From the NCBI GenBank assembly GCA_016200265.1, contig JACQFE010000019.1:1-64000 (forward strand): a DNA stretch of 64,000 nucleotides, in the 5' to 3' direction. The stretch comes from Planctomycetota bacterium. GTDB taxonomy: Bacteria > Planctomycetota > Phycisphaerae > UBA1845. The position numbers were made by a program, and so were the translations under genes. This document shows positions 8,840-57,836 of the stretch, piece by piece (within the stretch, counting starts at the first letter, position 1; each line of letters opens with the position of its first letter). Under the pieces are notes generated by a model. That model saw only the letters and a program-made list of their open reading frames with translations, was not told the origin of the DNA and made no database searches.

Positions 8840-8887
8840 ATGGCATTTTTTCGTGAATCAGGGGGTCAGGGGGGGTGGAAATTCGCA

Positions 8888-8916
8888 TTGTTTACGGCCG
8901 TCCGTTTTGGTATGCT
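8888..8916 (+). promoter_or_regulatory. sigma70-like promoter for the seven-gene array
   Basis: TTGTTT (8888-8893) and TATGCT (8911-8916) are separated by 17 bp and point toward the first array gene, whose ATG at 8969 follows an AAAGGAGAGAG site. It sits in the 130-bp divergent gap between the terminase and the array. Read by eye only. Confidence 0.45.
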
Positions 8917-8968
8917 GGGCTTGTTCCAGTCTTCGAGGTGCATCCGGTTCATTCAAAGGAGAGAGACC

Positions 8969-10726: not shown

Positions 10727-10832
10727 CGGATTTTGATTGGAACTCTATGTAAACTGGGAGCATCAACGCGCTTGATTCTAGTTCATGGCGTGTTATTGCC
10801 TGTTTAGACGAATTTGCGAAGGGGAGAATTCC

Positions 10833-12971: not shown

Positions 12972-13025
12972 TGAGACGGATTGATGCGCTCGTTCTTATT
13001 GCGAGTTGCAGAAAGGAAGTCACTC
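12972..13025 (+). repeat. conserved array spacer (genes 2-3)
   Basis: This 54-bp spacer contains a block (GATGCGCTCGTTCTTATTGC, then GAGTTGCAGAAAGGAAG) that recurs at 15243-15298 and 20047-20102 immediately before the next start codon. It includes the Shine-Dalgarno sequence, so the duplication unit evidently carried its own spacer. Confidence 0.7.
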
Positions 13026-15242
13026 ATGTCTCGGAGACATTCCATAATGCATTTCGGATTCCTCATCCTGGTCACGAGTGAGGTTTATTTGTTCACAACT
13101 CGAACCGTCGTCGCCAAACCGCCGGCCAATTCCGGCGCCGAAAGGCTCGTCACCGGCGACGCTGCGCGGCTCGGCAGCGTCGCCAACACCGCGTCGGCCA
13201 CGCTTTTCTTTTGGTTCTCGCCCAGCCCCCCTTTGAACGGCAATCATCCTTCACTCGCCTATCCTCCGGGATTCACCTTCCTCGGCCCGCTCATTGTCTC
13301 CAGCGGTTATCCGTTCACTTCTGCATGGAGAGTGTACATGGGCAATTGGGATACCAGCGGTCAGGGCAATATTCGTCTCAGTGCATTTCAAGACCTGATC
13401 GATCAAAATGGTCTGCTGGGAGCGAATGCCTCACCACCCAGTCCCGGATGCGACCTGGTGTTTAACGGAAACGGTTGGGCGGCTTGCCACAAGACCTGCG
13501 CGGGGGGCGCACAAGACGGAATCCCCTGCGACACGGACGCAAAGTGCCAAGGCGGTGGCATCTGCACGGATCCGTGTCCCGCCATTCTTGGTGAGAACGG
13601 ACCCAAGTGCGGCACATGGACCGGGGGATTTTGTGATTCCTATTGGGTAAATGATCTCCAGCAAGATTGGGTCTTGGCGGGATTGCCTCCATCCGAGCGA
13701 GATAGCGGCCCAATGCCGCCGAACCTGGGCGCCCCTGGGTTCATGGGAACAGCAACTTTTGGCCACGAAGTCGTTGATCCGGGATCCTTGCGCTACGTGG
13801 GGACTGCGACAGTACAGGTGCCGGAATGCTGCCTTGGTACTTACACCATCGGCCACGTGGCTGCCGAGACATTCGCCCGAGACCAGGCCCAACCGGCGAA
13901 CAACATTCCCATTGCAGCCCTCACCGCCGGGCAAATAAGCTGCCGAAAAGGCAAATGTTGCACGCCGACACAGTGCATCGATGACCTGACGGCAAGCGGG
14001 TGCGCGGCCGCGGGAGGAGAAAACGGACCCCCCAGTTTCATAATAAGTCAAACTTGTACCAATCCTCCCACGACCGACGGTTGTTGCGAATGCTCGATTC
14101 CTTCAGACTGTAACGATAACGACCGTTGTACTGTGGATATATGCGGTTGCCAGTGCTCTCATGAGCGCAGATCAGGATGGAATTCCAACAGGTGTTGTAA
14201 TCCGGATACGGGAGCTGTTGCCACGAAGGCCATTGCTGACGGACCATGTGTCCGCGGATGCAGTTTGCCCGGTGATTATGGCGTTCCACAAATTGTGTAT
14301 TCGCCAGCCGGAACTCCCTGCCCCTCCGGCACCGGCAACCAATGCTTGGAGAATGAAGTTTGCGACGACACCGGCCATTGCACCGGAACGCCCAAACCAA
14401 TGGGCACACCCTGCATTCTTACTGACCTGTGCATATCCGACGTGTCGTGCGACGGTGCGGGACACTGTCTGGGTACCGCAAGCCCCCAAGGTACACCATG
14501 CACTCTTTCCGGAGCTCCGGATCCGTGCATCACCTCTTACGCCTGTGATGGCCAAAAACACTGCATCGCTCAACAAGACCTCGGTCCGCAATGCTTGAAG
14601 AATCGCTACATCACCTTTCTTCCGCAGGATACCGGAGGGCTTTCGGCGCTCCGTGTGACGTTGAATTCGCTTCAGCACCCGCAGCCGCCCAATGATCCGG
14701 CATTTCATCCGCAGAATTTCTCTGCATTTGAAGGTCAATTCCGCTGGGTGGGACCGTTGCAGGATTGCGAGGAATCGGAATTGCCTCCATCGTCATTTAA
14801 GTGCGCGATCTTGCAATGCACGCCGCTTTATGCCGACTGGGCTTCGCAATTGAGCGGCGAATGGTTGCAAGTCATGGGTGTGGAGGTGATGCCGAGTTCC
14901 ACATACACAATTGAGCAGTTGAATGCATCATGTCAGGGCAACGAGCAAGCCTGCTCCGATGTTGTGACTTCCGCGCTCTTAAGAACCGCCCGCTACGGCG
15001 ACTGTGTCCCTACATATCAGGATCCAAGCGCTTCCTCCTCCTCACAACCGAACGTCTCCGATGTCAGTCACATCGTCGACAAGTTCAAGGCAGTTCCCGG
15101 CGCCATCAGCCGCACGCGTGCTCAAATGCAGCCAGGCGTCATTGCCGTCGGACTACGCGTTACGATAGCCGACGTGGCCGTAACCCTCGACGCATTTAAG
15201 GGACTTGCGTATGCACAGCCTGGTCCGCAGAATTGCCCATGA
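13026..15242 (+). CDS. secreted Cys-rich array protein 3 (dockerin-like C-terminus)
   Basis: 738 residues from MSRRHSIMHFGFLILVTS with AAAGGAAG upstream; signal peptide through TRTVVAKPP. The N-terminal module is recognisable but diverged (AERLVTGDAARLGSVANTAS, FTSAWRVYMGNWDTS). The middle has CCTPTQCIDDLTASGC, CVRGCSLPGDYGVPQIVYSP and three TPC-type repeat units ending in CDG-x-x-HC. The C-terminal module (QCLKNRYITFLPQDTGG to GPQNCP) is the dockerin-like type. It is probably co-transcribed with its neighbours, with only 54-56 bp spacers on either side. Function unknown. Confidence 0.85.
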   Translation: MSRRHSIMHFGFLILVTSEVYLFTTRTVVAKPPANSGAERLVTGDAARLGSVANTASATLFFWFSPSPPLNGNHPSLAYPPGFTFLGPLIVSSGYPFTSAWRVYMGNWDTSGQGNIRLSAFQDLIDQNGLLGANASPPSPGCDLVFNGNGWAACHKTCAGGAQDGIPCDTDAKCQGGGICTDPCPAILGENGPKCGTWTGGFCDSYWVNDLQQDWVLAGLPPSERDSGPMPPNLGAPGFMGTATFGHEVVDPGSLRYVGTATVQVPECCLGTYTIGHVAAETFARDQAQPANNIPIAALTAGQISCRKGKCCTPTQCIDDLTASGCAAAGGENGPPSFIISQTCTNPPTTDGCCECSIPSDCNDNDRCTVDICGCQCSHERRSGWNSNRCCNPDTGAVATKAIADGPCVRGCSLPGDYGVPQIVYSPAGTPCPSGTGNQCLENEVCDDTGHCTGTPKPMGTPCILTDLCISDVSCDGAGHCLGTASPQGTPCTLSGAPDPCITSYACDGQKHCIAQQDLGPQCLKNRYITFLPQDTGGLSALRVTLNSLQHPQPPNDPAFHPQNFSAFEGQFRWVGPLQDCEESELPPSSFKCAILQCTPLYADWASQLSGEWLQVMGVEVMPSSTYTIEQLNASCQGNEQACSDVVTSALLRTARYGDCVPTYQDPSASSSSQPNVSDVSHIVDKFKAVPGAISRTRAQMQPGVIAVGLRVTIADVAVTLDAFKGLAYAQPGPQNCP

Positions 15243-15298
15243 TGAAAGACATTGGGATGCGATCATTCTTATTGCGAATTGCTGAAGGGAAATAAACA
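15243..15298 (+). repeat. conserved array spacer (genes 3-4)
   Basis: 56-bp spacer with GATGCGATCATTCTTATTGC followed by GAATTGCTGAAGGGAA, closely matching the spacers before genes 3 and 6. It carries the ribosome site of the fourth array gene. Confidence 0.7.
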
Positions 15299-17863
15299 AT
15301 GTCTCAGCGGCATTCCATGGCAAGATTCGGATTCCTTGTTGCGATCATCAGTGCAATTCATCTGTTTACAGTGCAAACCGTCGTCGCCAAACCACCCACT
15401 GCCTCGCAAACCGAACGCCTCGTCACCGGTGACGCCGCGCGCATCGGCGAGGTTGTAGCCGGCACCGGCGCCACACTCAAATTCTATTTCACGCCGCGCC
15501 CGCCGCTGCCGGGAAATGGGAGCAATTTTGACTACCCCACGGGATGGAGTATCAATGGTCAGGAGCTCACGGTTTACAATGGCGGTTTCGTGTCGGTTTG
15601 GATCACCCAGATTGAAGGTTGGGATCCGGATCAAGACCACCATCCGCTTCTCCAGTTTTTCCAGGATCAGATCAATGTGCCGGGCCAGAACATATCCCCG
15701 CCGAATAGTTGCGCCCTGTCTCTACTACCTAGTCTATTTTCATGCACAAAGACATGCTCAGGCGGCGCGCAGGATGGCAATACCTGCACAAGCGATGCGA
15801 AGTGCATAGGTGGGGTGTGCATGGACCCATGCCCGGAGTTACTCGGGGAGAACGGTCCGGAGTGCGGCGCGGATCACCACGCTGGCTACTGTCCTGGGAG
15901 CTGGCAGAATCCAACTCGGTCGGACTGGATTTTCGCCGGATTGACCTCCGATCATGAGCTTCACAGCTCGACGGTGCTCGACGACGCTTTTGGTGGACCC
16001 TTGTTCAATGGAACGACAGACGGAATTTCTCAACGATTCGACAGCGGTGGAAGATTTTACACCGGGACATTGCTTCTTTCCGTACCTCTATCGTGTTGCA
16101 AGGGGACTTACACAATATCGCACAAGGCGAGCAAGACGTATGCCATCGACGAGGCCGTGCCGTCGAATTCGATTCCAATTGCGGCATTGATCAGCGGTCA
16201 GCTTGAGTGTCAGATTGGCCGGTGTTGCACCAACATTGGCAGTTCGAATACATGCACCACAAATGTGAACTATTTCGAATGCAATTCCCTTCCCAGCAGC
16301 AACGGGCATGTCTTTTTGCCCGGCTCGACCTGCACGACGCCATGTTGTGCCCCAGCTGGTTCGCCCTGTCATTTCTCCATCCCGCATCCAGAATGCATCA
16401 CTGGCCAACACTGCGACTCCACGGGCATCTGCGTAAATGACCCCGCGCCGGAGAGTACACCGTGCAACCTCACTTCGAGCAATCCTTGCTTGTCGCCGGA
16501 GGTCTGCGATGGGCAGGGCGGTTGTTTCCAGCATGATCCCGTGCCGGAAGGCACATCGTGCAATCTCACTTCCAGTAACCAATGCTTGTCGCCGGCGGTC
16601 TGCGATGGGCAAGGCAATTGTCTCCAGAATGATCCCCTGCCGGAGGGCACATCGTGCAATCTCACTTCCAGTAACCAATGCTTGTCGCCGGCGGTCTGCG
16701 ATGGGCAAGGCCAATGTTTCCTGCCCCCCGCCCCAATGGGCACTGCATGTACGCTGCAGGGCGCTTCGAATGATCCTTGCTTGTTGCCGGCGATTTGCGA
16801 TGGTGCAGGCAATTGCTTCCAGCCTCCGGCAGAAATGGGAACGCCTTGCATTTTGCCGAACAGCGTGTGTACGACCGATCCTTCGTGCAACGGACAAGGT
16901 CAGTGTGTCAGACAGCCTGCTCCGGCCGGAACGCCTTGTAACCGTGTGTCCACCAGTCCGTGCCTGGTCAATCCCATTTGCGACGGGCAAAGCAATTGCG
17001 TATTTCAATTCGCGAAGGCTGGTACTCTTTGCACATTGACGAACAGTCCATGCCAGGCTAACCCTTCTTGCGACGGCCAAGGGAATTGTGTCGGACAGTC
17101 TGTTCCCGTCGGGACGCCATGTACAATTGCGAGCAATCCCTGCCTGGCGAATTCCACTTGTAATAGTGCCGGCAATTGTGTCGGCGGGGTGAACGATAAC
17201 GGCCCCGAATGCCTCAAAAATCGCTACGTCACAATCGCTCCTGAAGCTACCGGCGGCCTATCGGCACTTCGCGTCACACTGACATCTCTCATGCACCCGC
17301 AGCCGCCGAATCTTCTGCAATTTCCGCCGCCGAACTTTACCGCTCTTGAAGGCCAAATCCGTTGGGTGGGTCAGATCAATGATTGTGAAGAAACGGAATT
17401 GCCGCCAACAATTTTCAAGTGCGCGTATTTGCAATGCACACCTTTTTACGCCGATTGGTCGAGTCAACTGAATGGCCAATGGCTGCACCTCATGGGCAAA
17501 GAGATTGTCCCGAGCTCGCTTTACACGATCGATCAGTTCAATGCGAGCTGCCAGGGCAATGAATCAAACTGCGCCGACATTGCCATGACCGTCCAAGTTG
17601 AAACGGCCCGACATGGTGATGTCGCACCTGCTTTTCAGCTTACCGCTCCCGGTTCGCCTCTGACTCAGCCGAATATTTCCGATGTGAGCGCAATCGTTGA
17701 CAAATTCAAAGGCGTGCCGACCGCCGTCAGCCGCACGCGGGCTCAGCTTGTGCCCGGTGCCATCGGGATCAATCAACGCGTGTCGATCACCGACGTCGCC
17801 ACCGACGTAGATGCTTTTGTAGGTTTGTCTTACATACAACCCGGCCCGCAGCAGTGTCCGTGA
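15299..17863 (+). CDS. secreted Cys-rich array protein 4 with tandem CDG repeats
   Basis: 854 residues, the longest of the array, from MSQRHSMARFGFLVAI with GAAGGGAA upstream; signal peptide through QTVVAKPP. The N-terminal module (AERLVTGDAARIGEVVAG form, here TERLVTG) is followed by a CSGGAQDGNTC unit. Residues about 375-630 hold eight or nine roughly 30-residue repeats of the form GTxCNLTSSNxCLSPAVCDGQGxC, three almost identical even in DNA. The dockerin-like module (ECLKNRYVTIAPEATGG to GPQQCP) ends the protein. Six cysteines per two repeats suggests disulphide-locked extracellular rods; this is inferred. Substrate unknown. Confidence 0.85.
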   Translation: MSQRHSMARFGFLVAIISAIHLFTVQTVVAKPPTASQTERLVTGDAARIGEVVAGTGATLKFYFTPRPPLPGNGSNFDYPTGWSINGQELTVYNGGFVSVWITQIEGWDPDQDHHPLLQFFQDQINVPGQNISPPNSCALSLLPSLFSCTKTCSGGAQDGNTCTSDAKCIGGVCMDPCPELLGENGPECGADHHAGYCPGSWQNPTRSDWIFAGLTSDHELHSSTVLDDAFGGPLFNGTTDGISQRFDSGGRFYTGTLLLSVPLSCCKGTYTISHKASKTYAIDEAVPSNSIPIAALISGQLECQIGRCCTNIGSSNTCTTNVNYFECNSLPSSNGHVFLPGSTCTTPCCAPAGSPCHFSIPHPECITGQHCDSTGICVNDPAPESTPCNLTSSNPCLSPEVCDGQGGCFQHDPVPEGTSCNLTSSNQCLSPAVCDGQGNCLQNDPLPEGTSCNLTSSNQCLSPAVCDGQGQCFLPPAPMGTACTLQGASNDPCLLPAICDGAGNCFQPPAEMGTPCILPNSVCTTDPSCNGQGQCVRQPAPAGTPCNRVSTSPCLVNPICDGQSNCVFQFAKAGTLCTLTNSPCQANPSCDGQGNCVGQSVPVGTPCTIASNPCLANSTCNSAGNCVGGVNDNGPECLKNRYVTIAPEATGGLSALRVTLTSLMHPQPPNLLQFPPPNFTALEGQIRWVGQINDCEETELPPTIFKCAYLQCTPFYADWSSQLNGQWLHLMGKEIVPSSLYTIDQFNASCQGNESNCADIAMTVQVETARHGDVAPAFQLTAPGSPLTQPNISDVSAIVDKFKGVPTAVSRTRAQLVPGAIGINQRVSITDVATDVDAFVGLSYIQPGPQQCP
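16425..17195 (+). repeat. tandem ~90-bp coding repeats in array gene 4
   Basis: Repeated units encode GT-x-CNLTSSN-x-CLSPAVCDGQG. The units around 16530-16620, 16620-16710 and the one before them share long identical stretches (for example CAATCTCACTTCCAGTAACC). Later units have diverged. This suggests recent local expansion by unequal crossing-over or slippage, added to older copies. Confidence 0.75.
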
Positions 17864-17915
17864 AGTTTTCCCAATGAGTAAGATTGAGGCTCGACGGATG
17901 ATTGCAGTGTACTGA

Positions 17916-17957
17916 AAAGGGAAATCCAATGACAAGAAAGGGAAATCCAATGACAAG
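17916..17957 (+). repeat. 21-bp tandem duplication of ribosome site and start codon
   Basis: Two perfect copies (17916-17936 and 17937-17957) of a 21-bp unit, AAAGGGAAATCCAATGACAA plus G. Each copy has its own Shine-Dalgarno-like AAAGGGAAA and ATG (17929 and 17950). They are in frame, so the array-5 protein can begin at either ATG, seven codons apart. Confidence 0.9.
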
Positions 17958-20046
17958 ACAACGTCCTCAATCGAATCTCGCGCTGCTTGCTGCGGTCACG
18001 AGTGCGGTCTATTTGTTCGCGGCTCGAAATGTTCTCGCCAAGCCACCGGCCACCAGCGGTGCCGAAAGATTCGTCACCGGAGATGCCGAGCGGATTGGAA
18101 GCGTTGCTGCCATTGTTCCTGCGGGGGTTGTGGTATCCCTTGTGCCGATCGCTGACACGGGAAACTATCCGGACGGCTATTCGATTTCAGGAAACCATCT
18201 TCTGGTTTCCGGAGGCGGCTTCACTTCGGTCTGGCTCACAAAAATGGAGGGTTGGGAGAATGCGCCCGGTCATCCGCAACTTCGTGCCTTCCAGGACCAA
18301 ATCGACGTCAACGGTTTTCGAGGCGCGACTGCGACTCCACCGTATCCCGGGTGCGATTTGCCTTATCCGCCGGATGTTTCTTGTACAAAGACATGCGCGT
18401 CGGGGTCGCTTTATGGTCATCCCTGTTCATCCGACCTCGATTGTCAGGGAAGCCTGTGCAAGGACTCGTGTAAATCGACTCTTATTTACGAAGGCTCTCA
18501 TTGTGGCACTCTTGCTCCCGGAGTTTGTGACTGGGCATATGAGAATCCGTTCGATACTGGCGGCATTTTCCAGGGAATTCCGCAAAATCAGTACGTGATT
18601 TCAGTGGACGTGACGAATCCGGCCGGACCGATCTTCTCCGGTTCCACGCAACCGGGCTTCGAGGTGGCATCTTCGACTGAGCACCATAATGTCGGGACGC
18701 TGTTGATCTCCGTGCCGCTCTGTTGTCGGGGCACTTACACAATCGGGCATGTTGCGAGCGCGACGTTTGCGAAGGATCAGGCACAGCCTTCGAACTCCAT
18801 ACCGATTATCCAATTCTCATCCGGACAACTGGAATGCCAGACCGGGGCGTGCTGTACAACGGGATCCAACGTTCCCTGTGGAGCGATATGCACGGAGGGC
18901 ATTTCCAAAGCGGAGTGTGACGCAATGCCATCCCGCGACGATCGGCATAACTTCAGGGTCAATGTCCTTTGCTCGGATTGTGTCGGCTGTTGCGACGATT
19001 GCGACGCATGCACGGTAGAAGGTTGTGGCGTCCCTTGCATTCACACGCCGAAACCGGGATGGGCGCCGGGCGGGTCGACGTGCTGCGATTCGATCACCGG
19101 GGAGCTCACGCACCTCATTTTGGGGAATTCAGGCTGCTTGATACCGAATTGCAGTGAGCCGAATTCGCATGGAACGGTCGTCATGACGCCGGCGCCGGCA
19201 GGTACACCCTGTTCGAGCGGGTCTTCTTGCATCCTGAACGAACAATGTGATAACAGCGGAAATTGTGTTGGAACCCACCTTCCTCAAGGAGCGGATTGTG
19301 CGTATCCGACGCTTGGCAGTGATCCATGCATTGGATCGGCCGCTTGTGACGCCCAAAGCCGTTGCATTCCCGCCGAATATCTCGGCCCGGAATGTTTGAA
19401 GAATCGTTACATCACATTCTCGCCAATTGATGTTGGAGGAGTATCTGCGCTGCGCGTCACGTTGGACTCATTGCAACATCCCCAGCCGCCGAATCTCCCC
19501 CAGGTTCCGCCCCCGAACTTCTCCGCATTTGAAGGGCAGATACGCTGGGTCGGGCAGGTGAACGACTGCGAGGAAACGGAATCGCCGCCGACCTCTTTCA
19601 AATGCGCGTATTTGCAATGCACGCCGGTGTATGCGAATTGGACCGCGCTGCTCAACGGACAATGGCTGCACTTGATGGGGCCGGAGATCATGCCCAGCTC
19701 GCTCTACACCATCGATCAACTGAATGTGAGCTGTCAGGGAAACGAGCAAAACTGTTCGGATGTTGCCGCCACGACACAGGTTGAGACTGCACGAAACGGC
19801 GACTGCTTTCCGCCTTATCAGGACCGAACTACTGGTGCCCCTCTTACTCAGCCGAACATTTCGGACGTGTCCGCCATCGTCGACAAATTTAAGGGTGTTC
19901 CGACCGCCATCAGCCGCACGCGGGCACAACTTGTCCCCAGCACGATCGGCATCAATCAGCGAGTGTCGATCACAGACGTCGCCACCGATATCGATGCGTT
20001 CATCAACCTCCCTTACTACCAGGCAGGCCCCCGGAATTGCCCATAA
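17929..20046 (+). CDS. secreted Cys-rich array protein 5 (dockerin-like C-terminus)
   Basis: 705 residues from the first of two duplicated starts (MTRKGNPMTRQRP; the second ATG at 17950 is equally possible). Signal peptide through RNVLAKPP. The N-terminal module is the most diverged of the array ([20 protein letters not shown], lacking the [11 protein letters not shown] part). The centre has CCDDCDACTVEGCGVPC and CSSGSSCILNEQCDNSGNC units. The C-terminal module (ECLKNRYITFSPIDVGG to GPRNCP) is strongly conserved. Its upstream spacer differs from those of genes 3, 4 and 6. Extracellular; function unknown. Confidence 0.85.
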   Translation: MTRKGNPMTRQRPQSNLALLAAVTSAVYLFAARNVLAKPPATSGAERFVTGDAERIGSVAAIVPAGVVVSLVPIADTGNYPDGYSISGNHLLVSGGGFTSVWLTKMEGWENAPGHPQLRAFQDQIDVNGFRGATATPPYPGCDLPYPPDVSCTKTCASGSLYGHPCSSDLDCQGSLCKDSCKSTLIYEGSHCGTLAPGVCDWAYENPFDTGGIFQGIPQNQYVISVDVTNPAGPIFSGSTQPGFEVASSTEHHNVGTLLISVPLCCRGTYTIGHVASATFAKDQAQPSNSIPIIQFSSGQLECQTGACCTTGSNVPCGAICTEGISKAECDAMPSRDDRHNFRVNVLCSDCVGCCDDCDACTVEGCGVPCIHTPKPGWAPGGSTCCDSITGELTHLILGNSGCLIPNCSEPNSHGTVVMTPAPAGTPCSSGSSCILNEQCDNSGNCVGTHLPQGADCAYPTLGSDPCIGSAACDAQSRCIPAEYLGPECLKNRYITFSPIDVGGVSALRVTLDSLQHPQPPNLPQVPPPNFSAFEGQIRWVGQVNDCEETESPPTSFKCAYLQCTPVYANWTALLNGQWLHLMGPEIMPSSLYTIDQLNVSCQGNEQNCSDVAATTQVETARNGDCFPPYQDRTTGAPLTQPNISDVSAIVDKFKGVPTAISRTRAQLVPSTIGINQRVSITDVATDIDAFINLPYYQAGPRNCP

Positions 20047-20102
20047 TGAGACACATTGACATGCGATCGCTCTGCTTGCGAATTGCCGAAAGGAAGCAAC
20101 CC
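20047..20102 (+). repeat. conserved array spacer (genes 5-6)
   Basis: 56-bp spacer (ACATGCGATCGCTCTGCTTG, then CGAATTGCCGAAAGGAAG) that matches the spacers before genes 3 and 4, although the gene that follows belongs to the other C-terminal class. Confidence 0.7.
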
Positions 20103-21632
20103 GTGTTTCGACAGATGACTATAAAGAATCTCGGATTTCTCGTTGCGGTCGCGAGTGCGATTTGTGTGTTCACAAATCAGTCTGTTGTCGCCAAGCCGCC
20201 TGCCGCTTCCGGGGCCGAACGCCTCGTCACCGGCGACGCCGCACGAATCGGACATGTTGTGACCGGCACCGGCGCCACGCTGAAATTCTATTTCACTCCG
20301 CGACCGCCGCTTCCCGGCGCTCTTTTTTCGTTGGCGTATCCGCAGGGCTACAACATTACGGGTCAAAAGCTCGTTGTCTCCCGCGGTGGGTTCTACTCCG
20401 CATGGATCACACAGATTGAAGGCTGGGACCCAATGGGCACAGGGAATCCGTTGCTCCGCTCGTTCCAGGACAAGATCGATGCGAACAGCTTTAAGGGCGA
20501 AAACGCATCACCGCCCAACCCCGGCTGCAACCTGGTTTACCCCGCAGTCGTCATTGCGTGTCAAAAGGTTTGCGCGGTTGGCGTCAATCATGGCAGCCCC
20601 TGTACTACGAATGGTAATTGTCCCGGCAGTACCTGTGTGGACCAATGTCCCAACCTGCTGGGAGAGCCCGGGCCGAAGTGTGGTGGCACCATCGCTGGAG
20701 TTTGTGACTGGGGTTGGCAAAACACCTTTCGCGCAGATTGGGTGTTGGTCGCAAATGCCCCGAGCGATCAAATCGCTGTTGCGCAGATTGTTTCACCGAC
20801 GGGCCCGGTTATCGCCGGCGTGACGTATCCCGGTGTTGAGATTTTCGACACGGGCGTTCGATATTATACGGGCACTCTTGTGCTTCCGGTTCCGGCTTGC
20901 TCCAAGGGCGTTTACACAATCGGTCACAAGATCGACGAGACGTTCGCCCAGGATCAGGCCCAGCCGGCGAATGACATCCCTGTTGCCGCGTTTGTGGCCG
21001 GGCAGCTTTCGATTCCGACCGGTTCATGCTGCACGGACTTCACCACGCCGTCGCAGGCGACATGCACGCCTTCGTTATTCCTTGCCGGGTGCGACGCACT
21101 CACCAGCACCAACCTGCACGTCTTTCGCCCGGACACCGACTGCAACATTCCTTGCGCCGTGGAATGCGTGGCCGACGCCGATTGCGACGACCTTGCTGAA
21201 TGCACGGATGACACATGTGCTCCCGATCAAACATGCCTTCACACGCGCAACGAGGCAAGATGTAACGACGGCCTCGATTGCACGGACGACGTTTGCACCT
21301 CGGAGGGAGCCTGTGTTCACACACTCAGCCCTGCTTGCAACGACGGCGTGGATTGCACGATTGACGCCTGCGCCCCCAATGGCGCATGCGTTCACACCCT
21401 CGACGATGCCATTTGCGACGATGGCCTGTTCTGCAACGGAGCGGAAACCTGTACCGCGGCCGGTTGCCAATCCGGCGAGCCTCCATGTGCCATTGGCGAA
21501 ACCTGCGACGAGAACGCCGATACCTGCACATTCATTCCCATCCCGACCGTATCGCAATGGGGCCTTGCGGTGATGGCGCTCATGCTTCTAATTGCGGCGA
21601 AGATCGGCTTTCGCAGACGCGCGATGAATTGA
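20103..21632 (+). CDS. secreted Cys-rich array protein 6 with IPTL-CTERM sorting signal
   Basis: 509 residues from a GTG (fMet-FRQMTIKNLGFLVAVAS), chosen because GAAAGGAAG precedes it and the spacer aligns with those of genes 3 and 4. Signal peptide through QSVVAKPP. The N-terminal module (AERLVTGDAARIGHVVTGTG) is the standard one. In place of the dockerin-like module it has CDDLAECTDDTCAPDQTC-type repeats, about four of them, and a C-terminal [20 protein letters not shown] segment followed by RRR. That matches the IPTL-CTERM sorting tail (motif, membrane helix, basic end), which is thought to be processed by exosortase H. Likely surface-attached. Confidence 0.86.
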   Translation: MFRQMTIKNLGFLVAVASAICVFTNQSVVAKPPAASGAERLVTGDAARIGHVVTGTGATLKFYFTPRPPLPGALFSLAYPQGYNITGQKLVVSRGGFYSAWITQIEGWDPMGTGNPLLRSFQDKIDANSFKGENASPPNPGCNLVYPAVVIACQKVCAVGVNHGSPCTTNGNCPGSTCVDQCPNLLGEPGPKCGGTIAGVCDWGWQNTFRADWVLVANAPSDQIAVAQIVSPTGPVIAGVTYPGVEIFDTGVRYYTGTLVLPVPACSKGVYTIGHKIDETFAQDQAQPANDIPVAAFVAGQLSIPTGSCCTDFTTPSQATCTPSLFLAGCDALTSTNLHVFRPDTDCNIPCAVECVADADCDDLAECTDDTCAPDQTCLHTRNEARCNDGLDCTDDVCTSEGACVHTLSPACNDGVDCTIDACAPNGACVHTLDDAICDDGLFCNGAETCTAAGCQSGEPPCAIGETCDENADTCTFIPIPTVSQWGLAVMALMLLIAAKIGFRRRAMN

Positions 21633-21643
21633 GGGAGAGAACG

Positions 21644-23155
21644 ATGAATAATGCACGACAACCAAGATGTCCAGCATCCTACATGCGCCTTTTTATGGCG
21701 ATCTTTGTATGCGCTGCTATCGGCTTGATGACTTTGGTTGGTGTTAATGCCGCGCAGCCGACCAGTCGTGGACGCGGCGAGGTAACTGAGTACCAGGCGT
21801 CTCATATTCAACGATTGGTTACCGGCGACGCCGAGCGAATCGGAAACGTTGTGGCCGGTACAGGTGCGACGCTGAAATTCTATTTCACACCGCGCCCTCC
21901 GCTGCTGGGAACAGAGCCATCGTTGGCCTATCCGACGGGGTGGAACATTTCGGGTCAGAAGCTCACCGTCTCCGGCGGCGGATTTGCGTCGGCATGGATT
22001 ACGCAGATCGAAGGCTGGGATCCGGATGGTAATGGCGACGTGCTCTTGCGCTCCTTTTCCGATGTGATTGATGTCTATTCTCTCTTTGGCGACAGCGCTT
22101 CACCCCCCAATACCGGCTGCGATGTTATCTACTCGCCTGTCGGATGGATTCCGTGCCAGAAAACCTGCGCCGGCGGCACCAACAACGGAAGCCCCTGCAA
22201 TGGGAATAGCAACTGCCCGGGCGGCGCATGTTCCAATCCGTGTCCGACGATTCTCGGGGAAAACGGCCCGCGATGTGGTTATTGGGCTTCGGGTATCTGC
22301 GACTCTATTTGGCAGAACACGGATCGGGCAGATTGGGTCTTGGGCAGCTATCCACCGCAACCGGAAGGAATTTTTGACGGACTCCCATGCTTTCATGGCC
22401 CGTGTTTCGGTGGAACGACGCCATTGGGGGTTGCGGTATCCGACGCCGGATTGCGTTATTACACAGGCACAGTCACGCTGCAGGTTCCTGCATGTTGCAA
22501 AGGCACGTACAAAATGACACACTTCGCTGAATTGACATTTGCCAACGATCAGGCCCAGCCCGCGAACAATATCCCCATCGCCGCCCTCATTAGCGGACAA
22601 TTGGAATGCATCGCCGGATCCTGTTGCACTGATTTCACTTCGACATCTCAGGCATCGTGTACGTCCAACATACTTCTCTCCGAGTGTAACGCGCTAAGCA
22701 GTTCGAATCTGCACATTTTTCGAGATGGTATCGACTGCACGACGCCCTGCGGGGTTGAATGCGTGACGGCGGCCGACTGCGACGACCACAAGTTGTGTAC
22801 GGCAGATTCATGCACATCCGACGGTCACTGTGTGCATACGCACACCGACGCCATTTGTGACGACGGCGTGATCTGCACGATTGACACCTGCGCCGCAAAC
22901 GGCACCTGCGTTAACACGCCCGATGATTCACGTTGCGACGATGGTCTTTTCTGCAATGGCGTCGAATACTGCACCGCAGCCGGCTGCGCTTACGGCGATC
23001 CGCCCTGCGGGTTTGGCGAAACCTGCGACGAAACGACCGATTCCTGCGAACTCGTTCCGATCCCGACAGTTTCCCAATGGGGGCTGACGATACTGGCTCT
23101 ACTCGTTCTCATCGCCGCGAAAATCCGCTTTCGCATCCAGCCCGATTTGCGGTAA
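21644..23155 (+). CDS. secreted Cys-rich array protein 7 with IPTL-CTERM sorting signal
   Basis: 503 residues from [17 protein letters not shown], with GAGGGAGAG upstream and only 11 bp after the previous stop. Signal peptide helix [18 protein letters not shown]. The shared N-terminal module runs from [19 protein letters not shown]. Cys-rich repeats ([54 protein letters not shown]) lead to [20 protein letters not shown] and a basic end. Its last third is a close copy of gene 6. It is probably anchored or sorted by exosortase H; that enzyme is not in this window. It closes the array. Confidence 0.86.
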
Positions 23156-39986: not shown

Positions 39987-42590
39987 CTACGGACACGCGG
40001 CCGGTCCGGGAAACGGATACGCAAGGCTCTTGAACGCATCCACAATGTTAGCTACGTCGGCGATATCCACTCGGCCATTGGGAACCGCTGGATTCACGTC
40101 CGCGAGAGCGACGACGATGGCGGTTGGAACGGCCTTGAACTTGTCCACGCAAGCGGCCACATCAGCAATATTCGGCTGCGTCAGCGACGCGGGTGACGGC
40201 GCTTGAAACGGAGCGACCATATCTCCCCAACGCTGCGTACGCACCTTCAGCGGATCGGAGATTGCGGTGCAAGTTGCTTCGTTGCCTTGGCAGGAGACTT
40301 CAAGCTGTCGAATCTCGTACGTCGAACTTGGCACGACCCCTTGGCCGAAAACGTTCAATGTCTGCCCACCTAATGCCGCGTCCCAATCCAGGTAAACCGG
40401 CGCACATTGCAGGGTCGCGCACATGAACGTCGTCGATGGTGACTGTGTCTCCTGACATTCGCCAGGGATCCCGACATATCGATGCGCGTTCTCCTGCAAG
40501 TGAAAATCCGGCGCCGGAAACTGCATTGGATTCGCCGGATCAGGGTGCATCAAGCTGATCATCTTGACCTGGATCGCCGTTTCGCTCGCGGTAACCGCCG
40601 GCGATGGAATCGAGAAGGAAATATATCGAGCGGGGACAGCCGCGCCAGGTGCAGCGACTACCCTAAGACCCAGACTGCTTTCCGCTCCTGCGGCGACGGC
40701 CGTGAAGCCCATGTTGGGGGCGGGGACATCGCATTGGCCGTAATTGAATGGACTTCCGCACCCCCACGACACGATGGATCCGTCGGCCTTGAGCCCAAGA
40801 CTGTGGTATTCGCCCGCAGCGACCGCGACGAAGCCCGTATTAGGAGAAGGAACGTCGCATTGCCCGCCATCGTTGTTTGGATCACCACATCCCCAAGCCA
40901 CAATGGAACCGTCAGCCTTGAGACCCACACTATGACGCCAGCTTGCTGCAACAGCAATGAAATTGGCATTGGGTGCGGGGACATCGCATTGACCAGTGTC
41001 GTAAGGAATTCCGCACCCCCACGCCGCGATGGACCCGTCGGACTTGAGGCCCAAGCTATGAAAGTAGCCCGCGGCAACTGCGACAAAGCCCATGTTGAAC
41101 GCGGGGATGTTCGTTTGATACTCTACGTTGCGTCCCCACGCGACGATGGATCCGTCGGCCTTGAGGGCCAAACTGTGTTCCAAGCCTGCGGCGACTTTTA
41201 CGAACCCACCGTTGGGGGCGGGGACGTTGGTCTGACCATAGTTGTTGAATCCCCAAGCCAAAATGGATCCGTCGGCCTTGAGTCCCAGACTATGACCTTC
41301 GCCCGTCGCGACGCCGATGAAATTCGCATTGGGAGCAGGGACATGGGTCTGGCCATAAACGTTGTCTCCCCACCCCACGATTGAGCCGTCGCCCTTGAGG
41401 CCCAGGCTGTGAAACGATTTCGCGGCGACAGTGGTGAAACCCACGTTGAGAGAAGGGACGTTGGTCTGACCGTCACTGTTGAATCCCCATGCAACGATGG
41501 ATCCGTCGGCCTTAAGACCCAGACCGTGAAACGAATTCGAGGCGACGGTGATGAAACCGGTGTTGGGTGCGGGGACGTTGGTCTGACCAACGTAGTTGTT
41601 CCCCCATGCCACGATGGATCCGTCGGCCCTGACGGCCAGACTGTTTTCCCATGCTGCGACGATGGCGACGAAGCCGGTGTTCGGAGCGGGGACGTCAGTC
41701 TGTCCGTAGCTGTTGTCCCCCCACGCCACAATCGACCCGTCGGCCTTGAGGCCCAAACTGTGACCCGTGCTCGCGGCGATGGCGATGAAATCGGTGTTGG
41801 GAGCGGGGACGTCGCATTGACCGTAGTTATAGTTACTACAGCCCCACGCCACGATGGATCCGTCGGCCTTGAGACCAAGACTATGCACATCGCCTGCGGC
41901 GATGGCAACGAAGCCGGTATTCGGCGCGGGGACGTCACATTGACCATAGTCGTAATGGAAGGGGCCGCCACAACCCCACGCCACAACGGATCCGTCGGCC
42001 TTGAGGCCCATGCTGTGATACAAGCCTGCGGAGATGCCGACGAAATCGGCATTGGTCCCGGGGACGTCAATCTGACCGTATTCGTTGCTCCCCCACGCCA
42101 CGATGGATCCGTCGGCCTTCAGTCCCAGACTGGAGTCAAAATTCGCAGCGACTGCGACGAAGCCCGTGTTGGGAGCTGGTACGCTGGTCCTACCGTAGCC
42201 GTTGCTACCCCACCCCACGATTGATCCGTCAGCTTTGAGGCCCAGACTGTGAAAGCTGCCCGCGGCGACCGCCGTGAAGCCACTGGAAAGGTCGACACCG
42301 ACGACCTGATTTCCCCAACCGACGACCGCACCCTCTGCCTGTGCCTGATTCGCGACCGCGATTCCCACTTCGGTCGCCGCCGCGCCACCCTTGTACAATG
42401 GCGTGGCCGGGCGAAGGTCGTACTTCGTCCACGCCGCCAATTGAGAAACGGGTACCGACCCGATCCGCACCGCGGGTTTGCCGAGCGTGGGAACGTCACC
42501 CCGCTTCGAAGGGCCCTCAGCCCGTGCTGGAACTGAAAGGAGAACAAGAATCGCCACAAAGATTCGAGCAAACTTGAATGCTGTGTACAT
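39987..42590 (-). CDS. secreted RCC1-repeat protein with array-type C-terminal module
   Basis: 867 residues from MYTAFKFARIFVAILVLL, with GGAG upstream; signal peptide ends near ARAEG. About 14 RCC1-like repeats of roughly 40 residues follow (GFVAVAAGxxHSLGLKADGS, then IVAWGxNxYGQTDVPAPN), predicting one or two beta-propellers. The last 210 residues (RYISFSIPSPAV, FMCATLQCAPVYLDW, CQGNEATC, DVNPAVPNGRVDIADVANIV and a GPAACP end) match the C-terminal module of the array proteins. Here the Ca-loop-like D-x-N ... D positions are better kept. Extracellular; binding partner unknown. Confidence 0.85.
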   Translation of the reverse strand: MYTAFKFARIFVAILVLLSVPARAEGPSKRGDVPTLGKPAVRIGSVPVSQLAAWTKYDLRPATPLYKGGAAATEVGIAVANQAQAEGAVVGWGNQVVGVDLSSGFTAVAAGSFHSLGLKADGSIVGWGSNGYGRTSVPAPNTGFVAVAANFDSSLGLKADGSIVAWGSNEYGQIDVPGTNADFVGISAGLYHSMGLKADGSVVAWGCGGPFHYDYGQCDVPAPNTGFVAIAAGDVHSLGLKADGSIVAWGCSNYNYGQCDVPAPNTDFIAIAASTGHSLGLKADGSIVAWGDNSYGQTDVPAPNTGFVAIVAAWENSLAVRADGSIVAWGNNYVGQTNVPAPNTGFITVASNSFHGLGLKADGSIVAWGFNSDGQTNVPSLNVGFTTVAAKSFHSLGLKGDGSIVGWGDNVYGQTHVPAPNANFIGVATGEGHSLGLKADGSILAWGFNNYGQTNVPAPNGGFVKVAAGLEHSLALKADGSIVAWGRNVEYQTNIPAFNMGFVAVAAGYFHSLGLKSDGSIAAWGCGIPYDTGQCDVPAPNANFIAVAASWRHSVGLKADGSIVAWGCGDPNNDGGQCDVPSPNTGFVAVAAGEYHSLGLKADGSIVSWGCGSPFNYGQCDVPAPNMGFTAVAAGAESSLGLRVVAAPGAAVPARYISFSIPSPAVTASETAIQVKMISLMHPDPANPMQFPAPDFHLQENAHRYVGIPGECQETQSPSTTFMCATLQCAPVYLDWDAALGGQTLNVFGQGVVPSSTYEIRQLEVSCQGNEATCTAISDPLKVRTQRWGDMVAPFQAPSPASLTQPNIADVAACVDKFKAVPTAIVVALADVNPAVPNGRVDIADVANIVDAFKSLAYPFPGPAACP

Positions 42591-53713: not shown

Positions 53714-54330
53714 TCACGGATCCCCACCGCCTTGCTGAAGTCCGTAAATCTGACAATCAATAAACGGGCACGCTGATCCCAACCAGACGGGCTGCCAGGA
53801 GTATCCCCCGTGTGCGTAACGGTTGCACTCTGTGATGCGAGGCGTGCACTCGCCGCCATCGTAGCCTCAACATGCGCTGAGCGCATAGACTGCAACCGGC
53901 CCAGCAGGGATGACTGCAAACGCCGTTGAAGCACCAGTCATCGCTGCAGGCGTTCCCATCATCCGGGCACGAGCCGTCGCGATTGGTGTACGTGCACGAG
54001 TAATACGGCGGCCCGCTGATCTGCGAGCATTGGGAATTCCTGCAAGGCCCGCCATGACACGGCGAGTCTGTCACGCACTGGCCCTCAAGGCACGAAACAA
54101 TCTTGCACGGACGCTGCCCGGCGGGCACTTCGGCGTGTGCACGCAGCCCCCGGCCGCAAGGCTGCACGAATCGTTCGTGCAATCGTCGCCGTCGTTGTGT
54201 ACGGACAACACGTCACGCAGTCGGCGCAGCAATGCTCACCCCCGGACATCGCTGCGTCAGCCCCAGTGCAGCAAGGATCCTCATCCGCCGTGTGTCGGCG
54301 GAGCAGCGTTTCGGGCAGCGGTCTGTTCAT
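53714..54330 (-). pseudogene. multiply frameshifted remnant of a Cys-rich secreted protein
   Basis: Reading the minus strand with frame changes gives a continuous Cys-rich protein: DEDPCCTGADAAMSGGEHCC and ADCVTCCP, then (frame shift) HNDGDDCTNDSCSLAAGGC with VHTPKCP, then (shift) CKIVSCLEGQCVTDSPC to CFNGVCSHPCWAG, then (shift, with a TGA) GYDGGECTPRITECNRY and SACPFIDCQIYGLQQGGG. The first part closely resembles the CCADGVTCCP region of the 836-residue protein just upstream. At least three shifts mean it cannot be translated as one chain. Probably a decayed duplicate. Confidence 0.65.
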
Positions 54331-55315
54331 GGAGCGATTTCAGGATTCCCGCGGCCTGCTCACGCATGGTTACATCTGGGTCGCTCTGGGCGCGACCTGT
54401 CAGAATCGTCTCTACCTCTGGTCTAATTTGCCAGTGGCCCTGCGCCTCGAACACCAAGTCCTTACCATGGACGGCCATAGCCGCCTGCAGGGCCGCTTTA
54501 CGCAGTTCAACGTCCGGATCGCTCAAGCCCTTTGACACGTAGCTTCTCAGGATTTGCTGCGTCGCCGGGGTGAGTTGAGACGCGCCCTCCGTTTCCATGC
54601 CATACTGCGTGATCGCTGAGAGTGCGGCGCTTCGCCCTTGCAAGTCCACAACTTTCTCAGCGATGGGGAGGAACTCGTCTGTGCCAACGATTTCAAGCAA
54701 TGCGGTCGCTGCGAAAATTCGAAGGCTTGCGTCGCCGGGTGCGGCCGTTAAGATTTCCTGAACGCGCGGCACGACCAGCCTGATGTTTTCGGGGTAGCGC
54801 GGGGCGGACGGGTTTCCCAATAGGGGCCCTCCAGGATAACGCGGCAAGTGAGTGATTGTCTGGAGTGCCGCAGATATGACCTCGCTCGCCCTGCCCCGAT
54901 CCTCCAACAATTCCGCGAGTGCCTTGACGACATTGGCATGTTGCTCCCCCGGTGCCAGCACAAGAGCGGTTGCTGAATCCCGTTGGATCGCGACGTCCGA
55001 ATCCTTCAACCCCGCCAAGAGTTGATCCATTCCAGTCGGGAAGCGTGCGGCGCCCTTGTGAAGTAGAATATAATAAGTCATTGCCCTGATCCCATCCTTA
55101 CGATACGCGGGATCATCACGAAGCGCTTTCGCCAGTAGAGGCACAACTTCCGAATCGCTGAGTTGCATGAGACAATTGTAAGCCTTCGCTGACGAGTATT
55201 CTGCGGCGAAATCGCGAACGCAATCGTCGGCGTTCGCCGGTACACCTCCCGCCGAGCGTAACACGCAGAGTGCCAGCGAAGAACACAAACCAAAAAGCGT
55301 CCCGAGCTTCTTCAT
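54281..55315 (-). CDS. secreted HEAT-repeat protein
   Basis: 344 residues with GAGGAGATC before the ATG; signal peptide MKKLGTLFGLCSSLALCVLR. About seven HEAT-like helical pairs follow (DSEVVPLLAKALRDDPAYR, GLKDSDVAIQRDSATALVLA, GLSDPDVELRKAALQAAMAV, AQSDPDVTMREQAAGILKSL), a typical protein-protein scaffold. It lies 10 bp after the 836-residue Cys-rich protein stop, so the pair is likely co-transcribed and may act together outside the cytoplasm. Its last codons overlap the decayed remnant at 53714-54330. Confidence 0.82.
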   Translation of the reverse strand: MKKLGTLFGLCSSLALCVLRSAGGVPANADDCVRDFAAEYSSAKAYNCLMQLSDSEVVPLLAKALRDDPAYRKDGIRAMTYYILLHKGAARFPTGMDQLLAGLKDSDVAIQRDSATALVLAPGEQHANVVKALAELLEDRGRASEVISAALQTITHLPRYPGGPLLGNPSAPRYPENIRLVVPRVQEILTAAPGDASLRIFAATALLEIVGTDEFLPIAEKVVDLQGRSAALSAITQYGMETEGASQLTPATQQILRSYVSKGLSDPDVELRKAALQAAMAVHGKDLVFEAQGHWQIRPEVETILTGRAQSDPDVTMREQAAGILKSLHEQTAARNAAPPTHGG

Positions 55316-55325: not shown

Positions 55326-57836
55326 TCACGGAATCAGGACCGGCTGCCAAGAAATACTGACGTTTAGGTCGTTGTCAGGAGGCAACAACCAGTAGCCGTT
55401 ACTCATGATCTGACATGGGTCAACTATTGGATAAACTCCTCCGTTGACAATCAATTCGTGCCATGGAAAACCATCCATGAAACCATCGAACCGCATCTCG
55501 AGTGGACCCAATGTATTGCCTTCGCATTCTTGCTTGAGGTAAACAGTCAGGTCCGAGTCAATCGAAGGCGTTCCTGGACCGCTGCAGCCTGCAGTCGCGA
55601 ACAGATGGAATCGAACCTTCACATTATTATTGTCAATTCGCTCCGGTAGGGTTTCCCATCCGGAACTGCCGGGTCCGCTGCAATTCGGCTGCTGGTTCGG
55701 ACCTGCGTAGAAACGACACAGAATAGAACACCAGTCCGCGTAAGGCGGCGGGGTTTCAAGAAGTGAGATGTAGCCATTCGATATTCCCGAGGATTGTACG
55801 GGAGGGCCGACTTCGCCGACTGAGTAGATCGGATCAAGCTTCATCACAATGCTTTGCTGCGTGCGGCTTGTTCCCGGAGCATTGAATACACGCCCATCAC
55901 CCGAAAAGAAGGGCCACACAGGACTCGGATAACCTGTTTGAATGTAACCGCAGCTAATGAATGTCTTGTACTCTAGCGTAACCGGTGTGTAGGTTCGATT
56001 GATCGTCAGGGTACCGGAGGCGCCACATGACTGCCCGTTGGCACTTCCTGAAACATCAATGATGACATCACTGGGTGGTGCGTCGCCGTGAATGTAAACG
56101 CTGACAGTCCGCGTTTGATTACCGTCGGCGCAGTTGATCGGCTCAGGGATGGAAATATCGAGCCAAGGCTGCATAATGAGACTATACGGCGTGGGGTAAC
56201 GCGCGTGGACATCGAATGTCATGCTATTGCACCCCGGCCGGCAACTCCCCGTCAGAGTCAATTCTATCGTCTGACAAGGCGCGCCGCTCGCCGAACTCAG
56301 CGAAACAGAGCATCCTGGCTGTACGCATTCTTCGTTGCAGCAAATGTATCCATCGGCACAGCACGCGTGTCCGCAACAAGAATCCGCGCCCGAGGCCGTT
56401 GCGCTCGTCGGACAGCAAGTCACCCCATCTGCACAACAATGTTGGCCCGACGGACAACAGCCCGTTTCGCCGCAGCACTCCTGGCCGTCCGGGCAGCATA
56501 CGGCCGTTCCGGGGCAACATTGCTCACCGTCGCACTTCGGTTCGTGCCAACAGGACCCCGCGCTGCACCCGTCGATCGTGCAGACGTCTCCATCGTCGCA
56601 ATTCATACACAAACATCGATTGCAGATACATGGGTCGCATAGGCACGGATTCCCGCACAACGGATCGCATGGGTTGCTGTTCCCGCAGCATGGATTGTCC
56701 GGATTGCAGCATGGGTCGGGATCGCCGCAGCAGATATCACTCGAATTGCAGCACGGGTCCGTGCTCCCGCAACATGGATTGTCCGAATTGCAGCAACGAT
56801 TCGGATCCCCGCAGCATCGGTCGTTCGAATCGCAGCACGGATCTGAATTCCCGCAGCACGGTTCGCCCCGGCAACACCGATTCCCACAGCACGGGTCATC
56901 GCAGCAGGGGTCCGTGCTTCCACAGCAGGGGTCCGTACCGCTGCAACACGGATTCCCGCAGCATGGATCACCCGATCCGCAGCAGGGGTCCGGATCACCG
57001 CAGCATGGATTGGTGCTGCCGCAGCAGGGATCGGGGTTCCCGCAACAAGGCGTGCCGCAGCAGCCCGTGCAACCGCCTCCACCACCGCATTTCCCCGTGC
57101 CCGTGGAAACCACGGCAGTGATGATCATCTCGCGAGGCGACCGTATTCCGACTTGCCGCAGCGGCGCCCACAATTCCGCCGCACCCAATACCTCGATCCG
57201 AGGTGCGTGATCTTCCGCCGACGCAACCGGAATCGGACAACCTCCCGGTCCGGTGGACACGCCGGAGACGTTCACATCCGTGGCAAGCTCCGGACCTAGA
57301 GCCGACGCATCAAAACCCATGATCCTGAGGATCGTGTCCCGCATGGCCGGCACCCAGTGATCGCCGCGACCGGTGAATCCTTCGATCTTCGCCACCTTCT
57401 TACCGAGATCGGGAAAATTGGCCATCAGTTTGACCGCGTCATCGCTAAATTGCTTGCCAAGTCTGTGCATCGCAAGTACGGCATCGTCTTCGTCAATAAT
57501 CAAACGATCATAAACCCAAACCTGACCGATATCATCGCGCCACCAGCCGAGATACCCTGTGGAATCGCGATTGTCGTCCAACGGAATCATTGAAGGGAAA
57601 ATGACGATCGTGCCTTTATTTGAGAGCGCCCGCAGCGTAAGTTCCGCTGTATCGCGAATGAACCCTGAATCTCGCCCACCAGCGGTAGGCGATCGAGGCC
57701 CATCGAAGGTGCGCTCCGCGTCTTGCGCATTCACGACGCTTCGATCGATAATGCTGAATTGCAAGACGGACACCCATAGCGCGGCCAATGTGCATGACCG
57801 CCGAGTACTGTAAAAGCGACTTGTATGCGACGACAT
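55326..57836 (-). CDS. secreted protein with a vicinal-dicysteine (CCG-x-x-DPCCG) repeat domain
   Basis: 836 residues with AAGGGGAAGG upstream; signal peptide (LAALWVSVLQFSIIDRSVVNA). Residues 40-260 form an uncharacterised domain (GTIVIFPSMIPLDDNRDSTG, YLGWWRDDIGQVWVYDRLI, VSTGPGGCPIP). Residues about 265-410 are a repeat domain with some 25 CC pairs in units such as PCCGNPDPCCGSTNP and DPCCGSGDPCCGNP. Residues 410-520 are Cys-rich (CDDGDVCTIDGCSAGSC, CCPSGQHCCADGVTCCP, CCADGYICCNEECVQPG). Residues 520-836 hold Ig-like and beta domains (CQTIELTLTGSCRPGC). A disulphide-cross-linked or metal-binding surface protein is plausible. No known family was recognised. Confidence 0.85.
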   Translation of the reverse strand: MSSHTSRFYSTRRSCTLAALWVSVLQFSIIDRSVVNAQDAERTFDGPRSPTAGGRDSGFIRDTAELTLRALSNKGTIVIFPSMIPLDDNRDSTGYLGWWRDDIGQVWVYDRLIIDEDDAVLAMHRLGKQFSDDAVKLMANFPDLGKKVAKIEGFTGRGDHWVPAMRDTILRIMGFDASALGPELATDVNVSGVSTGPGGCPIPVASAEDHAPRIEVLGAAELWAPLRQVGIRSPREMIITAVVSTGTGKCGGGGGCTGCCGTPCCGNPDPCCGSTNPCCGDPDPCCGSGDPCCGNPCCSGTDPCCGSTDPCCDDPCCGNRCCRGEPCCGNSDPCCDSNDRCCGDPNRCCNSDNPCCGSTDPCCNSSDICCGDPDPCCNPDNPCCGNSNPCDPLCGNPCLCDPCICNRCLCMNCDDGDVCTIDGCSAGSCWHEPKCDGEQCCPGTAVCCPDGQECCGETGCCPSGQHCCADGVTCCPTSATASGADSCCGHACCADGYICCNEECVQPGCSVSLSSASGAPCQTIELTLTGSCRPGCNSMTFDVHARYPTPYSLIMQPWLDISIPEPINCADGNQTRTVSVYIHGDAPPSDVIIDVSGSANGQSCGASGTLTINRTYTPVTLEYKTFISCGYIQTGYPSPVWPFFSGDGRVFNAPGTSRTQQSIVMKLDPIYSVGEVGPPVQSSGISNGYISLLETPPPYADWCSILCRFYAGPNQQPNCSGPGSSGWETLPERIDNNNVKVRFHLFATAGCSGPGTPSIDSDLTVYLKQECEGNTLGPLEMRFDGFMDGFPWHELIVNGGVYPIVDPCQIMSNGYWLLPPDNDLNVSISWQPVLIP
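56600..57090 (-). repeat. coding repeats for CCG-x-x-DPCCG units
   Basis: Tandem 18- to 24-bp units encode the dicysteine domain; on the plus strand they read as GCAGCA-type pairs (for example CCGCAGCAGGGGTCCGGATC). Units differ at many third positions, suggesting an old repeat kept by selection on the protein rather than a fresh expansion. Confidence 0.75.

What the first reader, a model, noticed from the sequence alone, without database searches (positions are those of the whole stretch)
55326..57836. Secreted protein with about 25 vicinal cysteine pairs
The domain made of CCG-x-x-DPCCG units is extraordinary in cysteine density. Vicinal pairs are known from metallothionein-like and keratin-associated proteins, but a secreted bacterial repeat of this type is unusual. 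Planctomycete walls were reported to be cystine-rich, so a disulphide-cross-linked structural role is reasonable. It could also bind soft metals.
Basis: partly seen in the sequence, partly recalled or inferred. Interest (0 to 1): 0.72.

Follow-up and report, generated by a model that had tools for sequence, protein, structure and literature searches.

The report
Cysteine-paired heptad stalk protein
An uncultured planctomycete-type bacterium encodes a secreted protein whose middle is a repeat of paired cysteines every seven residues; relatives swap this stretch for quite different repeats, so it is most likely a disulphide-stiffened spacer between working domains.

Summary
ORF 55326-57836 (-) encodes 836 aa with a signal-peptide-like N-terminus, 89 Cys and 29 CC pairs: 20 in a heptad array (consensus CC[G/N]xx[D/N][P/R], aa 259-389) and 9 in a shorter granulin-like stretch (aa 440-500). 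No Pfam or NCBIfam family claims it. Relatives occur almost only in one uncultured Phycisphaerae family; stray, unverified cases lie in single contigs labelled as other phyla. Across ten arrays the heptads have a 28-residue super-period, and Cys is kept while its codons change, so the Cys frame is selected. The main new result is cassette swapping: the same N-terminal domain is joined to CC heptads, acidic DxDGxPN repeats, 24-residue Cys repeats or CTDC-type repeats, and within one genome 80-84% identical N-domains carry different linkers. The C-terminal domain is followed 10-40 bp downstream by a HEAT-repeat gene in all 5 genomes with a full-length match, again with different middles. Best reading: an oxidised, acidic, interchangeable spacer or stalk. 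A specific cell-wall role or soft-metal binding is not supported. Fold and disulphide connectivity remain unknown because AlphaFold was not confident there. New variant of a known kind, interest about 0.5.

The parts
57726..57836 (-). Probable signal peptide (aa 1-37, VNA|QDAE)
   Evidence: Hydropathy peak at aa 15-30 and small-residue cleavage site, by inspection; no SignalP
57096..57725 (-). N-terminal domain (aa 38-247), kept in relatives in front of different linkers
   Evidence: Matches in 8 of 51 genomes of the family; alignment A7; AlphaFold pLDDT about 60-80 for the better part; no PDB match
56670..57062 (-). CC-heptad array, 20 vicinal Cys pairs (aa 259-389), net charge about -16
56598..56669 (-). 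Transition with single Cys and CxC (aa 390-413, CDPLCGNPCLCDPCICNRCLCMNC)
   Evidence: Sequence; also in L029, L034, L037 (and alignments)
56532..56597 (-). One CTDC-like unit (aa 414-435, DDGDVCTIDGCSAGSCWHEPKC)
   Evidence: Sequence; below Pfam detection here, but PF00526 well above cut-off in relatives L048 and L049
56325..56519 (-). Granulin-like block with 9 CC pairs (aa 440-504)
   Evidence: phmmer to Granulin A 2jye E=0.0065; Pfam granulin model not reached
55992..56312 (-). Beta-rich, possibly Ig-like domain (aa 509-615)
   Evidence: AlphaFold strands at pLDDT about 60; only generic, non-significant beta-sandwich hits; relatives in L015, L027, L041, L034
55329..55991 (-). C-terminal domain (aa 616-836) with the motif GFPWHEL..NG
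   Evidence: Alignment A5; 5 full-length matches in 397 genomes of the class
54281..55315 (-). Downstream gene: HEAT-repeat protein with signal-peptide-like start, 10 bp after the stop codon
   Evidence: PF13646 33.0 against 27.7 bits and PF13513 31.8 against 27.0 bits; homologue follows the C-domain gene in L010, L016, L039, L096

Best explanation
The gene encodes a secreted, modular surface or extracellular protein in which the CC-heptad array is a spacer: an extended or rod-like, acidic segment held together by many disulphides, which keeps the N-terminal domain apart from the C-terminal, functional domain. Shown by computation: the array exists, the Cys are under selection, the units have a 7/28-residue hierarchy, the array is interchangeable with other repeat types while flanking domains are kept, and the C-terminal domain is genetically coupled to a HEAT-repeat protein. 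Inferred: export by the signal peptide, oxidation of the Cys pairs to disulphides (VKOR-DsbA fusion available), rod-like shape, stalk function, and binding of the HEAT protein to the C-terminal domain. The disulphide pattern is unknown; a granulin-like ladder, in which the two Cys of a pair bond to different neighbouring units, is one possibility.
For: Linker swapping: the N-domain is joined to CC heptads, DxDGxPNGED repeats (L054), 24-residue Cys repeats (L058), CNGxExC repeats (L056) and CTDC repeats (L055); in one genome the N-domains of L037, L054 and L058 are 80-84% identical although the linkers differ. The C-domain occurs with CC heptads, a poly-D/N linker (L010) and 24-residue Cys repeats (L096), each followed by the HEAT gene at 10-40 bp. 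28-residue super-period, 0 of 2000 shuffles. Cys kept in 64 of 71 columns with 30 codon changes. VKOR-DsbA fusion in the genome.
Against: No structure: AlphaFold is mostly below pLDDT 50 in the array, so a rod is not shown. Redox state is not measured. Why Cys pairs would be needed if a poly-D/N linker can replace them is unexplained, so the array could have an added function.
Confidence: 0.55

Rival explanations
1. The array is an intermolecular cross-linking domain: the protein is a building block of a disulphide-hardened cell wall, sheath or matrix, working like keratin-associated proteins or the Cys-rich wall proteins of other planctomycetes.
For: Very high Cys density and export; Cys-rich YTV proteins are found in wall preparations of Planctomycetales (PMC8567305); the array resembles in composition structural Cys-rich proteins (MSSP model).
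Against: Patchy: 13 of 397 genomes of the class, all in one family, so not a general wall component; relatives replace the array with Cys-free acidic linkers; in most genomes only one to four array loci.
Confidence: 0.2
2. The array binds soft metals (Cu, Zn, Cd), as a secreted metallothionein-like domain.
For: 41 Cys in 134 residues with no aromatic residue or His and an acidic make-up.
Against: Exported to an oxidising compartment with VKOR-DsbA available; no metallothionein family match; no metal-related gene among the direct neighbours (HEAT protein, folate synthase-type Mur ligase); the natural replacements are acidic repeats that would at most bind calcium.
Confidence: 0.12
3. The Cys-rich frame is a shadow or neutral low-complexity expansion of a 21-bp DNA repeat.
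For: A 288-aa QHG-rich antisense frame overlaps the array (56344-57210 +); short tandem DNA repeats are detectable.
Against: Cys are kept while Cys codons change (30 of 64); N-domain dS 0.256 against dN 0.050 between L030 and L032; 28-residue super-period across many species.
Confidence: 0.03

Closest known systems
Granulin (PF00396)
   Same: Successive CC pairs with 4-6 residue loops; in granulins they form a ladder of disulphides and stacked hairpins (PMC11035057). The second CC block (aa 440-500) aligns with Granulin A at E=0.0065.
   Different: Profile not reached; the main array is a strict heptad with D/N-P before each pair and up to 20 or more pairs, not a 12-Cys module.
Keratin-associated proteins (high-sulphur, CCxPx pentads; from own knowledge)
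   Same: Tandem vicinal Cys with Pro, structural, disulphide-rich
   Different: Pentads rather than acidic heptads; intracellular animal hair proteins; no Pfam match
Drosophila male-specific sperm proteins (MSSP, PF03940)
   Same: C/G/P-rich repeats; a relative's array (L045) scores 22.6 bits against a 21.2 cut-off
   Different: The window array scores 10.9 bits; shared composition is the likely cause
Planctomycete YTV cell-wall proteins
   Same: Cys-rich exported proteins of the same phylum (PMC8567305)
   Different: Reported only in Planctomycetales; no Pfam match here
Dicty_CTDC repeat (PF00526)
   Same: Often adjacent to the CC array in relatives (L048, L049); one similar unit in the window protein
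   Different: A different Cys unit of about 24 residues; below detection in the window protein
Thrombospondin type 3-like acidic DxDGxPN repeats
   Same: Natural replacement of the CC array in paralogue L054
   Different: Calcium-type acidic repeats without Cys pairs; not part of the window protein

Membership tests
Granulin (PF00396) | Match to the granulin profile above the curated cut-off | tested here: not met
   No Pfam hit for the whole protein or the block alone; own-genome search did not find this place at E up to 1
Granulin (PF00396) | Sequence similarity to solved granulins | tested here: inconclusive
   aa 434-490 to Granulin A, E=0.0065 with the block alone and 0.12 with the whole protein
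Granulin (PF00396) | Ladder of stacked hairpins with cross-disulphides | not testable with these tools
   AlphaFold confidence too low in this part; disulphide patterns need chemistry
Metallothionein | Match to a metallothionein family | tested here: not met
   No Pfam or NCBIfam family
Metallothionein | Metal-thiolate clusters with reduced Cys | not testable with these tools
   Needs purified protein; export and VKOR-DsbA argue for oxidation
Planctomycete YTV wall proteins | YTV-type domain match | tested here: not met
   Pfam scan returned no family at E up to 10
Planctomycete YTV wall proteins | Present in insoluble wall fraction | not testable with these tools
   No proteome of this lineage
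MSSP (PF03940) | Profile score above 21.2 bits | tested here: not met
   Window array 10.9 bits; only L045 passes
Keratin-associated proteins | Match to a keratin-associated Pfam family | tested here: not met
   None among Pfam hits of the 15 arrays
Dicty_CTDC (PF00526) | Profile match in the window protein | tested here: not met
   No hit, though relatives L048 and L049 pass
HEAT-repeat protein (downstream partner gene) | HEAT profile above the curated cut-off | tested here: met
   PF13646 33.0 against 27.7 bits; PF13513 31.8 against 27.0 bits

The most novel reading that the evidence does not exclude
The CC-heptad array is a new open-ended 'cystine solenoid': a regular rod in which each vicinal pair bonds to neighbouring turns, with four heptads (28 residues) as the structural period, recruited by bacteria as an interchangeable rigid stalk.
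Probability: 0.3. Interest if true: 0.75.

Novelty: new variant of a known kind. Interest (0 to 1): 0.5.

Why it matters
It defines an apparently undescribed bacterial repeat and gives a natural experiment, in which flanking domains are kept while linker types are swapped, that makes the role of such Cys-rich arrays testable. If the array folds as a regular disulphide ladder it would be a new kind of rigid protein rod, of interest to structural biology and materials design. It also shows that a Phycisphaerae lineage, outside the order with the known Cys-rich wall proteins, has its own set of Cys-rich exported proteins.

Tried and rejected
AlphaFold of the mature protein and of the array alone: low confidence in the array, so no fold or connectivity is claimed. 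Foldseek against PDB: nothing below E 0.08, only generic beta-sandwich hits. Viral contigs: no relative. PDB profile searches of the N-domain, C-domain and array: nothing convincing. A transglutaminase-like C-terminal domain in some relatives was suspected from the motif GECHDQVHLMNLALQ but not confirmed by Pfam or PDB profiles; another relative, L049, gives Transglut_core just below its cut-off. Literature search for the motif strings: 0 papers. Rejected: shadow ORF or neutral repeat; cystine wall role as the leading idea (PMC8567305, PMC3072084).

Full report
Observation. The minus-strand ORF at 55326-57836 encodes 836 aa with 89 Cys and 29 vicinal pairs. Twenty pairs form an array at aa 259-389 and nine lie at aa 440-500. 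Fifteen of the 20 array units are exactly seven residues; four are five and one is six. Shuffling the residues of the Cys-rich stretch reached 20 pairs once in 20,000 trials. A probable signal peptide (aa 1-37) is read by inspection and hydropathy. The start codon follows a GGGGAAGG stretch.

Architecture. After the signal peptide come an N-terminal domain (aa 38-247), the CC array, a transition with single Cys, one CTDC-like unit, a granulin-like block, a beta-rich domain (aa 509-615) and a C-terminal domain (aa 616-836). Pfam gives no family at E up to 10, and NCBIfam only a chance hit. The granulin-like block aligns with Granulin A at E=0.0065, but the granulin profile is not reached.

Distribution. 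Of 60 genomes near the window's own, 13 have a match to the protein, its own genome included. The array alone was found in 13 of 397 genomes of the class, all in the same family and again with the own genome counted. A pattern scan of 84,980 named species genomes gave 22 loci, mostly records titled Phycisphaerae or Planctomycetota. Single contigs are labelled Acidobacteria (L038), Nitrospiria (L045, in front of RHS repeats), Micrarchaeota (L044), Polyangiaceae (L046), Nannocystaceae (L047), Proteobacteria (L042) and Alphaproteobacteria (L050, with a pilin-like N-terminus). These labels rest on single contigs of metagenome-assembled genomes and were not verified. Viral contigs gave nothing.

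Regularity and selection. Over 152 seven-residue units from ten arrays, position 3 is mostly G or N, position 6 is D or N in 148 and position 7 is P or R in 141 (positions 1-2 are Cys by definition of the unit). Units four apart agree at 0.62 of positions 3-7, against 0.39 in shuffles (0 of 2000 reach it); units eight apart agree at 0.55. The period is therefore 28 residues, most clearly in L031 and L035; the window's array is less regular. Between L034 and L037, 64 of 71 Cys columns are kept, 30 of them with a changed Cys codon, while only 86 of 175 non-Cys residues are identical. The L030/L032 N-domain has dS 0.256 and dN 0.050. This speaks against a shadow ORF and against neutral drift. These are crude pairwise estimates on relatives, not on the window gene itself.

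Linker swapping. The N-domain occurs with CC heptads (window, L030-L034, L037), acidic DxDGxPNGED repeats (L054), 24-residue CCGVxCxxCxSC repeats (L058), CNGxExC repeats (L056) and CTDC repeats (L055). L054 and L058 lie in genome G067, and the 864-aa frame of L037 is G067:C77. Their N-domains are 80-84% identical where they could be aligned; with L054 the similarity stops where the linker begins, and between L037 and L058 it runs on through a short shared stretch before the linkers differ. The C-domain occurs with CC heptads (window, L039), a poly-D/N linker (L010) and 24-residue Cys repeats (L096). The array is therefore exchangeable with repeats that do not share its Cys content.

Partner gene. 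The next gene (54281-55315), 10 bp downstream on the same strand, encodes a HEAT-repeat protein. A homologue follows the C-domain gene at 38, 25, 25 and 40 bp in L010, L016, L039 and L096. Of seven genomes with a C-domain match in the class search, the five with a full-length match all have the pair; two weak partial matches (L097, L098) do not show it. I infer that the HEAT protein binds the C-terminal domain.

Mechanism. The genome encodes a VKOR-DsbA fusion (the DsbA part is read from its CPMC motif), so exported Cys pairs are likely oxidised. The simplest account is a disulphide-stiffened acidic stalk. Some N-domain relatives have lipobox-like motifs, which would put the stalk on a membrane anchor; the window protein has none that I can see. 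AlphaFold stayed mostly below pLDDT 50 over the array, and AlphaFold gave a wrong disulphide pattern for a mini-granulin peptide (PMC11035057), so connectivity is open.

Wall role. Cys-rich YTV wall proteins are reported solely from Planctomycetales (PMC8567305), and the Isosphaera wall is described as lacking cysteine (PMC3072084). The patchy distribution of the array argues against a general wall component.

Novelty. No paper of the library holds the motif strings (open-access papers only). One relative's array (L045) passes the Pfam cut-off of MSSP, a fly sperm-protein family, but the window array does not; I read this as shared composition. I rate the finding a new variant of a known kind: disulphide-rich repeat spacers.

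Noticed in passing
window 8825-23155 (+): Tandem family of seven Cys-rich (4.4-7.3% Cys) exported-type proteins; most share an N-part ([12 protein letters not shown]...) and several a C-part (QPNISDVSAIVDKFKGVP...QPGPQQCP), with different Cys-rich middles, e.g. many 24-residue units in 15299-17863; the last two end in IPTL-CTERM. The same swapping theme as the main finding.
   Followed up: partly
window 39987-42590 (-): Protein of RCC1-like KADGSIVAWG repeats ending in the same C-part as the Cys-rich tandem family at 8825-20046.
   Followed up: no
window about 53780-54290 (-): Frame-broken relic of a granulin-like plus CTDC-like Cys-rich gene directly after the HEAT gene (pieces in three frames).
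   Followed up: partly
window 56344-57210 (+): Antisense QHG-rich open frame of 288 aa over the CC array, a by-product of the Cys codons.
   Followed up: yes
window 7391-8533 (-): Frame that reads like a terminase large-subunit fragment (VFLDEFAMHADDRDIW...STPQGKGNTFF), possibly a prophage relic; by eye only.
   Followed up: no
L038:5692-9120: Contig labelled Acidobacteria: 47 CC pairs, largely CCGDP pentads mixed with CCGSSDP heptads, then a putative Ig domain.
   Followed up: no
L045:201-4274: Contig labelled Nitrospiria: a CCGSTDP array in front of RHS repeats.
   Followed up: no
L050:1999-3639: Contig labelled Alphaproteobacteria: pilin-like N-methylation motif followed by many CC units (N_methyl just under its cut-off).
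   Followed up: no
L033:8756-9742: Second, truncated copy next to an intact one in the same genome; here single Cys of the array are being lost (RCGQ, DPYCGN).
   Followed up: partly
L027: Relative with granulin-like CC blocks that ends in a zinc-protease-like motif HEIGHTLGLPHSS.
   Followed up: no
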